Part shown: positions 71 to 63,566 of the stretch, piece after piece
Position numbering within the stretch: position 1 is the stretch's first letter
How the letters are laid out: the number at the start of each line of letters is the position of its first letter
NCBI GenBank assembly: GCA_028283825.1
Contig: JAPWJW010000003.1
Coordinates: 1,612,501-1,676,500 of the forward strand
Length of the DNA: 64,000 nucleotides
Direction of reading: 5' to 3'
From: Azospirillaceae bacterium
GTDB lineage: Bacteria > Pseudomonadota > Alphaproteobacteria > Azospirillales > Azospirillaceae
Notes under the pieces: model-generated
Told to the model about the DNA's origin: nothing
Databases searched by the model: none
Seen by the model: the letters and a program-made list of their open reading frames with translations, nothing else
Position numbers and translations under genes: made by a program

Positions 71-75
71 GGTTC

Positions 76-188
76 CCTCAGGCGCCGGGCGCCGGCATCC
101 GCCGACTTGGCTCATCCTCAGTTTCCAGTCCGCTACGCTCCCCGGAAACTTCCGGCGGCCCCGGTCGGGGCCTTGTCGCTTCGCTCCG
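76..188 (-). repeat. Multi-hairpin intergenic element, copy 1
   Basis: It begins CCTCAGGCGCC and carries, in reverse orientation, the GGAT-loop stem (H4), the TTTCC/GGAAA stem (H3) and the GGCCCCG-GT-CGGGGCC stem (H2). It ends with the GGAGCG-AGCGACAAGG variant instead of the CAGCGGC hairpin (H1). Strand here means that the H1-to-H5 order reads on minus. Confidence 0.75.
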
Positions 189-214
189 AAGCTTATCCAG
201 ATCGCACATAGACG

Positions 215-248: not shown

Positions 249-258
249 ACTGAACCCC

Positions 259-402
259 AGCGGCATGAGACATCTCATGCCGCTGTAGGACGCGACCGCG
301 TCCGCCGGAGCGAGCACCGCAGGGCGGAGCGAGGAAGCCAAGGCCACGGATGTGGCCGCCCGGCGCCTGAGGGTGGCCTTTGATCGGTTACGATCAAAGG
401 CC
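259..402 (+). repeat. Multi-hairpin intergenic element, copy 2
   Basis: Order on plus: H1 (259-269/274-284, loop ACAT), GTAG, H2 (GGACGCG-AC-CGCGTCC), a variant centre (GAGCACCGCAGGGCGGA) replacing H3, H4 (GGCCAC-GGAT-GTGGCC), CCTGAGG, then H5 (375-386/391-402, perfect 12-bp stem containing TTTGATCG). It ends about 11 nt from the clpB stop codon. Copy 6 has the same variant centre. Confidence 0.8.
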
Positions 403-413
403 AACAACTATCA

Positions 414-15446: not shown

Positions 15447-15454
15447 GCGCCGCC

Positions 15455-15613
15455 AGCGGCACGAATTATTGATTCGTGCCGCTGTAGGCTGCGACCGCGG
15501 CCGCCGCAGCTTTCCGGGGAGCATAGCGGACTGGAAAGCGAGGAAGCCCAAGCCCGCGGATGCGGGCGCCCGGCGATTGAGGGGCGGTATTTGAGCGGTC
15601 ACGGTCAAAGACC
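15455..15613 (+). repeat. Multi-hairpin intergenic element, copy 3
   Basis: It starts 8 nt after the htpG stop. H1 arms are 15455-15466 and 15472-15483. GTAG, H2 (GGCTGCG-AC-CGCGGCC), H3 (GCTTTCC with GGAAAGC), H4 (GCCCGC-GGAT-GCGGGC) and a degenerate H5 with two mismatches follow. The rest of the 530-bp gap to the next gene holds the terminator at 15646-15686 and no convincing ORF. Confidence 0.85.
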
Positions 15614-15645
15614 GCGCGTATAGGCCCTGATATTCAAGTGCCGTT

Positions 15646-26054: not shown

Positions 26055-26067
26055 CGCGCTATATGCC

Positions 26068-26226
26068 AGCGGCACAAGCTTCTGACTTGTGCCGCTGTAG
26101 GCTGCGACCGCAGCCACCGGAGGTTTCCGGGGAGCGAAAGCGGACTGGAAACCGAGGATCAGCCCAGCCGGCGGATGCCGGCGCCCGGCGCCTGAGGGGG
26201 TCTTTGATCGGCCACGATCAAAGACC
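26068..26226 (+). repeat. Multi-hairpin intergenic element, copy 4 (most complete)
   Basis: All five hairpins are present: H1 (26068-26078/26086-26096), GTAG, H2 (GGCTGCG-AC-CGCAGCC, perfect), H3 (GGTTTCC/GGAAACC), H4 (GCCGGC-GGAT-GCCGGC) and H5 (26199-26210/26215-26226, perfect 12 bp). It fills the space between the convergent kinase and arsC-like genes and is the best reference copy. Confidence 0.9.
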
Positions 26227-26233
26227 GCGCGTA

Positions 26234-26581
26234 TCAGAGTACTTCCGCCAGGCGCTCCACCGGGCGGCAGAGGACGGCGCCCTTGGGGCTGCGGGCGATG
26301 GGGCGCTCGATCAGGATGGGATGGGCTGCCATCAGGTCCAGCAGGGCGTCGTCGCTGAAGCCGCCCGCCGGTTCGCCCACCAGCAGCTCATCATTGCCGC
26401 GGCGGCGCAGGATGTCGGCGGGACGCGCCTTCATGGCAGCCAGCATGTCCGCCAAGGCGGCACGGTCCGGCGGGGTCTTCAGATATTCCACCACCGTCAC
26501 CGCGTGCCCGCCGGCCTGAAGGTCGGCCAGGGCACGGCGCGAGGTGGAGCATTTCGGGTTGTGCCACAGGGTGACGGTCAT
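26234..26581 (-). CDS. ArsC/YfgD-family (glutaredoxin-dependent arsenate reductase-like) protein
   Basis: This 115-residue thioredoxin-fold protein of the ArsC family is annotated in relatives as arsenate reductase (glutaredoxin). The N-terminal TLWHNPKCSTSRRAL carries the conserved catalytic cysteine (Cys10). Other family segments are VVEYLKTPP, the LLVGEP region and HPILIERPIA near 90-100. No arsenic operon genes are adjacent, so arsenate as substrate is unproven; the YfgD/Spx-like side of the family is equally possible. An in-frame extension upstream to 26725 is rejected, as it lacks similarity and runs past the natural MTVTLWHNP start. Confidence 0.85.
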   Translation of the reverse strand: MTVTLWHNPKCSTSRRALADLQAGGHAVTVVEYLKTPPDRAALADMLAAMKARPADILRRRGNDELLVGEPAGGFSDDALLDLMAAHPILIERPIARSPKGAVLCRPVERLAEVL

Positions 26582-26746
26582 AATGGGGCCTTGGTTCCGG
26601 TTCAGATCAGACGGCGGCCACCATAGCGGGGCCGCCATACCCGCGCCAAGCATGGTACAGAACCCCAGTGTAACGTGACGTTTTCGTCCTTCCACCCCGG
26701 GCCCGGCCTGGACTATCACTGCCATCGGTTAGTGTTGAGGTGAGAC

Positions 26747-30985: not shown

Positions 30986-30992
30986 CGTTTGC

Positions 30993-31118
30993 CCTCAGGC
31001 GCCGGGCGGGCCCATCCGGGCCCTTGGCTGATCCTCGATTTCCAGTCCGCTTCGCTCCCCGGAAATCTCCGGCGGATGCGGTCGCGTCCTACAGCGGCAT
31101 GAGTATCTCATGCCGCTG
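30993..31118 (-). repeat. Multi-hairpin intergenic element, copy 5
   Basis: It starts CCTCAGGCGCC 7 nt after the SDR stop. It contains H4 (GGGCCC-GGAT-GGGCCC), H3 (GATTTCC/GGAAATC), H2, GTAG, and H1 (31092-31103/31107-31118) when read on minus. It lacks H5. It ends 15 nt before the phhA stop, so it fills a convergent junction. Confidence 0.85.
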
Positions 31119-32168: not shown

Positions 32169-32318
32169 GACCTTTGATCGTGACCGATCAAAGGTCCCCT
32201 CAATCGCCGGGCGCTGGCATCCGCCAGCTTGGCTATCCTCGTTCCGCCCTGCGGTGCTCACTCCGGGGCCAGCCGTCGCCGGCCTCCAGCGGCACGAGAC
32301 TAAGTCTCGCGCTGCTGG
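32169..32318 (-). repeat. Multi-hairpin intergenic element, copy 6
   Basis: Reading on minus: an altered H1 (32286-32301/32303-32318), a degenerate H2, the same variant centre as copy 2 (GAGCACCGCAGGGCGGA), H4 (GCTGGC-GGAT-GCCAGC), then H5 (32169-32180/32185-32196; GACC/GGTC outer pairs). It ends 2 nt from the Lrp-gene stop codon and fills most of the phhA-lrp gap. Confidence 0.8.
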
Positions 32319-41210: not shown

Positions 41211-41236
41211 GGTATGCCCTTTCCAAACTGAAATCC

Positions 41237-41363
41237 GCGGCATGAGGCTTTCCTCATGCCGCCGTAGGATGCGACCGCATCCGCCGGAAGTTTCCGGGGA
41301 GCGTAGCGGACTGGAAACTGAGGACAAGGCAAGCGGGCGGATGCCCGCGCCCGCCGCCTGAGG
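41237..41363 (+). repeat. Multi-hairpin intergenic element, copy 7
   Basis: H1 (41237-41247/41252-41262, loop CTTT), GTAG, H2 (GGATGCG-AC-CGCATCC, perfect), H3 (AGTTTCC/GGAAACT), H4 (GCGGGC-GGAT-GCCCGC), then CCTGAGG. H5 is absent. It separates argJ (stop at 41373) from mutT, both on minus, so it would lie inside an argJ-mutT transcript if one exists. Confidence 0.88.
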
Positions 41364-41372
41364 GAACCTCAA

Positions 41373-47402: not shown

Positions 47403-47460
47403 CTGAGGAAAACAAAAAAGGCGGCCCCGTTTTGGGTGCCGCCTTTTTTGTTTTCCTCAG
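47403..47460. terminator. Strong bidirectional terminator after secA unit
   Basis: Perfect 23-nt arms at 47403-47425 and 47438-47460 enclose a 12-nt loop. The GC stem GGCGGC/GCCGCC is flanked by A6 and T6, so it works in both directions. The outer CTGAGG/CCTCAG bases merge with the start of repeat copy 8. Confidence 0.9.
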
Positions 47461-47565
47461 GCGCCGGCGGGCCATCCGGCCCTTGGCTGTCCTCGGTTTC
47501 CAGTCCGCCTGCGGCTCCCCGAAAACCTCCGGCGGCCCCAGTCGGGGCCTACTCGCTGCGCTCGG
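47455..47565 (-). repeat. Multi-hairpin intergenic element, copy 8
   Basis: It begins at CCTCAGGCGCC inside the terminator arm. It has H4 (GGGCC-GGAT-GGCCC), H3 (GGTTT/AAACC), H2 (GGCCCC...GGGGCC), GTAG, and the GAGCGCAGCGAG variant in place of H1. It ends 32 nt before the greB stop. Confidence 0.78.
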
Positions 47566-48186: not shown

Positions 48187-48296
48187 GGAGCGTAGCGACA
48201 AGGCCGCGACCGCGGCCACCGCAGATTTCTGGGGAGCGTGAGCGGACTGGAAATCGAGGATAGCCCAAGGGCCGGATGGCCCGCCGGCGCCTGAGG
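48187..48296 (+). repeat. Multi-hairpin intergenic element, copy 9
   Basis: It starts GGAGCGTAGCGACAAGG (the non-H1 variant, as in copy 1). H2 (GGCCGCG-AC-CGCGGCC, perfect), H3 (GATTTC/GAAATC), H4 (GGGCC-GGAT-GGCCC) and CCTGAGG follow. It ends 10 nt from the chemoreceptor stop and begins about 52 nt upstream of greB. Confidence 0.8.
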
Positions 48297-48306
48297 CGAA
48301 CGAAAG

Positions 48307-54934: not shown

Positions 54935-55011
<77 letters not shown>

Positions 55012-60397: not shown

Positions 60398-60404
60398 GCG
60401 TCCG

Positions 60405-60499
60405 CCTCAGGCGCCGGCAGGCCCGTCCGCGCCTTTGGCTTGTCCTCGATTTCCGTCCGCTGCGCTCCCCGGAAATCTCCGCCGGACGCGGTCGCGTCC
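60405..60499 (-). repeat. Multi-hairpin intergenic element, copy 10 (short)
   Basis: It starts at CCTCAGGCGCC 7 nt after the polA stop. It has a loosely paired H4 (loop GGAC rather than GGAT), H3 (GATTTCC/GGAAATC) and a perfect H2 (GGACGCG-AC-CGCGTCC). It lacks H1, H5 and GTAG. It ends 34 nt before the thiE stop. Confidence 0.78.
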
Positions 60500-60533
60500 T
60501 GGAAAAAGAAGAAGCCGGCCGGCACTTGGCGCC

Positions 60534-61136: not shown

Positions 61137-63305
<2,169 letters not shown>

Positions 63306-63312
63306 CGCGATC

Positions 63313-63394
63313 TCCCTTCGCCGGCATGATCCGGAGCAGGTTCCATGGGTGTGATCTCAGCCGCGTTGCCTGGTCAGTCAGGTGCGGCACCCCA
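63313..63394 (-). promoter_or_regulatory. TPP riboswitch (THI box)
   Basis: On minus, GGGGTGC at the 5' end, CTGAGA about 32 nt later, ACCC and GGAACCTG, GGATCATGCCGGCGAAGGGA reproduce the TPP aptamer. The final GGGAG is also the Shine-Dalgarno for the TTG start 7 nt downstream. Binding of thiamine pyrophosphate should therefore block translation directly, without a need for a separate expression platform. Confidence 0.93.
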
Positions 63395-63566
63395 GTCGAT
63401 GACCGCGACCATGGCCGACCCGGCTGCCTTATTCAAGGGTCTTGGACATGCGTCCGCCTCACGCCGCCATGCCCTGTGAGCGGCGACCTGCCCCATCGGA
63501 GGTTTGACAAGCACGGTGATTGTCTGGACTCTGCAAACACTGGAGTACAGCTATCAAGGTCAGCTC

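What the first reader, a model, noticed from the sequence alone, without database searches (positions are those of the whole stretch)
26068..26226. Invariant GGAT tetraloop on a freely varying stem within the repeat
H4 has the same four-base loop in nine of ten copies (GGAC in copy 10), while most stem positions have changed in pairs. A conserved loop on a variable stem suggests that something reads the loop (protein, ribosome anti-Shine-Dalgarno-like pairing, or another RNA), or that it is the recognition site of a mobilising single-strand nuclease.
Basis: seen in the sequence. Interest (0 to 1): 0.6.

Follow-up and report, generated by a model that had tools for sequence, protein, structure and literature searches.

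The report
Mobile hairpin repeat with invariant loops
A small jumping DNA element that forms a chain of hairpins is present in hundreds of copies in this Nitrospirillum genome and in several other families of Alphaproteobacteria; it often sits exactly at the ends of genes, and its hairpin loops stay the same while the paired stems change freely, which suggests that the folded strand itself is what matters.

Summary
The H4 loop is GGAT in 9 of 10 window copies and GGAC in one. In 305 distinct copies from seven Nitrospirillum species it is GGAT in 80% and GGAC in 12%, with a nearly invariant C-G closing pair, on 49 different stem sequences that change in pairs. H4 is not special within the repeat: the H2 loop (GACN) and most unpaired positions are equally fixed. 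The repeat is the structured core of a MITE-like, REP-like family. Full-length copies end in TAC(C)...GGTA/GATA, carry 3-bp TNA duplications (15 of 18 in Azospirillum ramasamyi), avoid genes, and abut an exact stop codon in about a third of cases, this window copy included. The same core, usually with GGAY, occurs patchily in seven other alphaproteobacterial families. It is absent from Rfam and I found no description of it. The proposed single-strand nuclease (RAYT/IS200 type) is absent from the genome, as is CsrA; an anti-Shine-Dalgarno role is contradicted. Copies without terminal repeats keep the core, so more than TIR-based transposition maintains it. Who reads the loop, if anyone, and the autonomous transposase remain unknown.

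The parts
26068..26098 (+). H1 hairpin, part of the left terminal unit; expected TAC before CAGCGG is degraded to TGC (26065-26067 region) here
26100..26115 (+). H2 hairpin GGCTGC-GACC-GCAGCC; conserved GACN loop on a variable stem
26122..26153 (+). H3 hairpin (long type), G/U-tolerant, co-varying
26154..26158 (+). GAGGA, invariant unpaired linker
26162..26189 (+). H4 hairpin: basal GCC/GGC, internal loop, 6-bp stem, GGAT loop
26173..26176 (+). GGAT tetraloop of H4 (closing pair C26172-G26177)
26183..26198 (+). invariant tail GCCCGGCGCCTGAGGG
26199..26226 (+). H5 hairpin (optional in other copies), right terminal unit
26231..26236 (+). right end GTA directly abutting TCA = stop codon of the ArsC-like gene 26234-26725(-)
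75..190 (-). copy 1 (GGAT)
257..405 (+). copy 2 (GGAT; short middle module; H5 present)
15452..15616 (+). copy 3 (GGAT; H1 to H5; no element in six sibling species)
30992..31118 (-). copy 5 (GGAT)
32170..32318 (-). copy 6 (GGAT; short middle module)
41232..41364 (+). copy 7 (GGAT; slot occupied in all seven species)
47446..47563 (-). copy 8 (GGAT)
48187..48305 (+). copy 9 (GGAT; decayed remnants in three sibling species)
60403..60500 (-). copy 10 (GGAC)

Best explanation
H4 is one hairpin of the folded core of a class-wide family of non-autonomous mobile elements (MITE-like, REP-like). Shown: full-length units (H1 to H5) are short, non-coding, end in TAC(C)...GGTA/GATA and insert with a 3-bp T-N-A duplication, often exactly on a stop codon; they lie outside genes, next to gene ends, and turn over fast. 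Inferred: the core hairpins persist because the folded single strand (a cruciform or ssDNA during mobilisation, or its transcript) is needed to keep the element going. Only pairing is demanded of stem bases, so they drift in compensated pairs, while loop and junction bases are fixed because they are contacted by a trans-acting factor or needed for a defined turn (a C-closed G-N-A-Y loop). Rough split: loop read by a factor 0.45, loop purely structural 0.35, other 0.20.
For: Covariation with fixed loops. Same core and C-GGAY-G loop in other Azospirillaceae genera and in other alphaproteobacterial families. Clean 156-bp units with perfect TSDs in 15/18 A. ramasamyi copies. TSDs in Nitrospirillum 11/31 against 3.4 by shuffling, 0/2000 as high. 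Empty sites: G003 versus G006 and A. brasilense versus Azospirillum sp. TSH58. Exact stop-codon contact in 18/49 Nitrospirillum copies (p=5e-7) and 6/18 A. ramasamyi copies (p=0.006), against a 9.9% base rate. 0/139 copies in genes, convergent spacing enriched 4.4-fold. Fast turnover between species. Complementarity of stems is pointless for a factor that binds ordinary duplex DNA, so a folded strand is implied (inference).
Against: No autonomous transposase with these ends was found; the IS5-type elements in the same genomes have other ends. Copies lacking H1 and H5 keep the core almost as well (2.6% versus 1.3% deviation at fixed unpaired sites), so TIR-based transposition alone does not explain core conservation. 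In H2 and H4, G-T and A-C mismatches are equally frequent (38 versus 31, p=0.47), giving no sign of which strand folds; only H3 is biased to G-T (46 versus 15). No factor that reads the loop is known.
Confidence: 0.5

Rival explanations
1. The core is a functional RNA: transcribed from flanking genes or on its own, it works as a 3'-end structure (mRNA protection, attenuation) or small RNA whose loops contact a protein or RNA; insertion at stop codons is the harmless way to carry it.
For: RNA-grade covariation and strong fold (z -6.9). H3 favours G-U over A-C pairs on the + strand. Position next to gene ends. Core kept in copies without TIRs. Copy 7 slot kept in seven species.
Against: No orientation bias relative to tandem genes (41 versus 30, p=0.24). 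Most slots are not conserved between species, and remnants decay. No Rfam family. No U-tract follows H4 or H5, so not an ordinary intrinsic terminator. DNA-fold z-score is equally strong (-6.5).
Confidence: 0.25
2. The loop is conserved for structural reasons only: C-(GNAY)-G is a stable, fast-folding turn that nucleates a hairpin; nothing reads it.
For: Loop variants keep G1 (302/306) and A3 (304/307) while positions 2 and 4 vary; the C-G closing pair is fixed although the next pair is free. Family f44 uses GNA triloops.
Against: Junction and linker bases (GAGGA, GCCAAG, tail) are equally fixed and are not turns. H2 has a different fixed loop, GACN.
Confidence: 0.2
3. Paired changes are made by mutation, not selection: template switching within quasi-palindromes copies one arm onto the other, so stems look co-varying without any need to fold.
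For: Between close copies, compensated double changes are about as common as single breaks or G-U changes (50 versus 51 and 43), and 32 of 50 are double transversions without a G-U intermediate. The two IS110-split H4 halves differ by one compensated swap inside otherwise nearly identical flanks.
Against: It predicts loops and junctions drifting as fast as stems. Observed pairwise difference is about 0.26 in stems and 0.03-0.05 at fixed unpaired sites. It may contribute to how stems change, but does not explain fixed loops.
Confidence: 0.05

Closest known systems
MITEs of DDE insertion sequences (3-bp T-N-A duplications; from general knowledge, the IS5 family IS1031 group makes TNA duplications)
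   Same: Short, non-coding, inverted ends, 3-bp TNA duplication, many copies, internal-deletion derivatives, empty sites in relatives.
   Different: Ends (TACC) do not match the IS5-type elements found in the same genomes (GAGTC, GAGTGCG); the interior is a conserved multi-hairpin core seen in several families; no autonomous partner found.
REP/BIME elements with RAYT transposases (GTAG REPs, PMC3733652)
   Same: Hundreds of palindromic extragenic copies, gene-end and convergent bias, use as landing sites for IS elements (PMC1525189).
   Different: No RAYT/Y1 transposase in the genome; TSDs present; 100-160 nt multi-hairpin unit; loops fixed and stems free.
IS110-family landing sites in REPs (IS621; PMC11208160)
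   Same: An IS110-family element (PF01548, PF02371) is inserted at the same point, AGCCAAG just 5' of the H4 stem, in two different copies.
   Different: Here the repeat is only the target; bridge RNA matching was not tested.
attC sites of integrons
   Same: Structure kept, sequence free, a few fixed unpaired bases recognised in a folded strand (analogy from general knowledge).
   Different: Dispersed single copies, not cassette arrays; TSDs; integrase not tested.

Membership tests
MITE | short non-coding unit with terminal inverted repeats, many copies | tested here: met
   156-bp units with TACC...GATA/GGTA ends; hundreds of copies
MITE | target-site duplication | tested here: met
   15/18 in A. 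ramasamyi; 11/31 versus 3.4 expected in Nitrospirillum
MITE | autonomous transposon with the same ends | tested here: inconclusive
   none seen in the stretches read; IS5-type elements have other ends; the whole genome was not available as a file, so the search was not exhaustive
REP with RAYT | Y1 (RAYT/IS200) transposase in the genome | tested here: not met
   PF01797: 0 matches in G000, 5 of 14 controls positive
REP with RAYT | GTAG tag at the foot of the palindrome | tested here: inconclusive
   GTAG precedes H2 in H1-type copies, but CTAG/CAAG are common and other genera lack it
REP-like (general) | high-copy, extragenic, gene-end location | tested here: met
CsrA/RsmA target or sponge RNA | CsrA encoded in the genome | tested here: not met
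   PF02599: 0 matches, controls positive
Rfam structured RNAs | match above gathering score | tested here: not met
Intrinsic terminator | G+C hairpin followed by a U-tract | tested here: not met
   sequence after H4 and H5 read directly
attC | cassette arrays next to an integron integrase | not tested
   copies are dispersed singly; integrase not searched

The most novel reading that the evidence does not exclude
A previously undescribed, class-wide family of mobile elements that settles precisely on stop codons and whose propagation or host function depends on a folded strand read through fixed loops (GACN, GGAY) on sequence-free stems, by a factor not yet known.
Probability: 0.3. Interest if true: 0.85.

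Novelty: new variant of a known kind. Interest (0 to 1): 0.6.

Why it matters
Here stems are free and loops fixed in hundreds of copies per genome and across families. That gives an unusually large natural mutagenesis data set for a folded nucleic acid, a defined mobile unit with clean target duplications that often coincide with stop codons, and a landing site for an IS110-family element. If a factor reads the loops, it would be a new way of recognising a dispersed repeat; if none does, the work still explains a major repeat class of Azospirillaceae genomes.

Tried and rejected
RAYT/IS200 mobiliser: absent. CsrA sponge: absent. Shine-Dalgarno mimic: fourth base wrong. Kissing of H2 and H4 loops: no mutual information above shuffles. 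Known RNA family: none. Autonomous partner: the 1-kb unit in A. ramasamyi (L308) proved to be an IS5-type element nested in H1 with other ends; the 1.25-kb unit in G000 proved to be an IS110-family element inserted in the repeat; IS5-type elements of G000 have GAGTC ends. One stop-codon count used too loose a filter (222 mostly false units, no enrichment); it was redone with a strict filter, and only the 9.9% base rate and the A. ramasamyi p-value were kept. A strict stop-codon-only target is not claimed: many insertions lie at other TNA sites and one lies inside a predicted gene. Plasmid records: no match for the window copy. Literature searches found no description of the family; only open-licence papers are held.

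Full report
Observation. The ten repeats of the window were extracted and folded. Nine carry GGAT and one GGAC in the loop of H4. In the named copy H4 is 26162-26189, with the loop at 26173-26176. The window belongs to a Nitrospirillum genome (G000, 7.16 Mb; the genus follows from its siblings, all Nitrospirillum or filed as Azospirillum sp. B4). The core motif occurs about 385 times in G000 with a zero reversed-pattern control, and nhmmer finds 139 copies in 1.23 Mb of the same replicon. In 309 distinct copies from seven species the loop is GGAT 245, GGAC 37, others 23 of 305; the closing C-G pair is present in 297 of 307; there are 49 different 5' arms. On 38 diverse copies 98.5% of pair cells are paired, with 148 double-changed cells against 41.8+-4.7 in shuffles and at most 27 when slid. 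So the pattern is real and far above chance. The counts are of sequences, not independent events.

What is special. H4 is not alone: H2 has a fixed GACN loop, and GAGGA, GCCAAG and CGCCCGGCG..TGAGG are nearly invariant, whereas paired columns vary. The rule is that unpaired bases are fixed and paired bases are free. Loop variants keep G1 and A3.

Relatives. A covariance model finds the same core in other Azospirillaceae genera and, in a sample of 190 class members, in 10 genomes, including seven families other than the window's own (sequences). GGAY holds in nearly all of these; family f44 has a GNA triloop instead. In one search the automatic loop assignment is ambiguous for G+C-alternating stems, where the letters are still CGGATG.

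Mobility. In A. ramasamyi the units are 156 bp, mostly 99-100% identical, begin TACCGCC, end GATGATA, and 15 of 18 are flanked by identical TGA, TCA or TAA. In Nitrospirillum full-length copies 11 of 31 have identical flanking triplets, against 3.4 by shuffling. Two empty sites are clean: G003 versus G006 and A. brasilense versus TSH58, the latter at the end of an open frame. Turnover is fast: of the eight window slots that could be compared, only one is occupied in all seven species; others are without an element, hold remnants, or hold a different or inverted copy.

Position. None of 139 copies overlaps a predicted gene. Convergent spaces are enriched (odds ratio 4.4) and divergent ones avoided (0.125) (genes predicted by my own codon-usage script). 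18 of 49 full-length Nitrospirillum copies and 6 of 18 A. ramasamyi copies touch a stop codon exactly, against 9.9% of non-coding TNA sites in G000. The window copy's right end touches the stop of the ArsC-like gene at 26234. This may be target preference or purging of other insertions; the data do not separate them.

Mechanism. Because stems must be complementary but not of any sequence, a folded strand is the likely selected form. Which strand, and whether DNA or RNA, is open: G-T and A-C mismatches are balanced in H2 and H4 (38 versus 31, one poorly aligned pair left out), but G-T prevails in H3 (46 versus 15). There is no orientation bias at tandem genes (41 versus 30), which weighs against a one-strand 3'-UTR role. 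Copies without H1 and H5 keep the core nearly as well, so the core is maintained by something beyond TIR-based transposition. Close copies show many compensated double changes, 32 of 50 of them transversions, so arm-to-arm copying may speed stem change, but it cannot fix the loops.

Rejected readings. RAYT-type nuclease, CsrA, Shine-Dalgarno mimicry, kissing loops and Rfam families are excluded or contradicted. The mobiliser is unknown.

Verdict. Observation confirmed; interpretation partly supported. A new, class-wide variant of the MITE/REP kind with fixed loops on free stems.

Noticed in passing
G000 C3:1556179-1557430 and 1945932-1947183: A 1.25-kb IS110-family element (98.7% identical copies, one with a broken reading frame) inserted at the same point, AGCCAAG 5' of the H4 stem, in two different repeat copies.
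   Followed up: partly
L308 (A. ramasamyi C1:1447800-1450900): An IS5-type element (GAGTGCG ends, TTA duplication) nested in H1 of one unit.
   Followed up: yes
L324-L330 (G124, family f44): Distant version of the repeat, often in close tandem, with a 7-bp H4 stem and GNA triloop.
   Followed up: partly
G001 C4, slot orthologous to the G006 element at 137626-137729 of the joined stretch: Tandem expansion of the H2 unit (GTAAGCCCCGACTGG repeated about eight times).
   Followed up: no
window 257-405 and 32170-32318: Alternative middle module (GGAGCGAGCACCGCAGGGCGGAGCGAGGA) replacing the long H3; a third type, CGGACCGGGCCGGTCAGGCCCGTGAGCC, also exists on the replicon.
   Followed up: partly
L293 (A. 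ramasamyi): 48-bp unit made of the terminal parts only, flanked by TGA: internal-deletion derivative without the core.
   Followed up: no
window 63295-63404 (-): TPP riboswitch (Rfam RF00059, 61 bits).
   Followed up: no
window 54935-55011 (+): tRNA-Arg (CCG).
   Followed up: no
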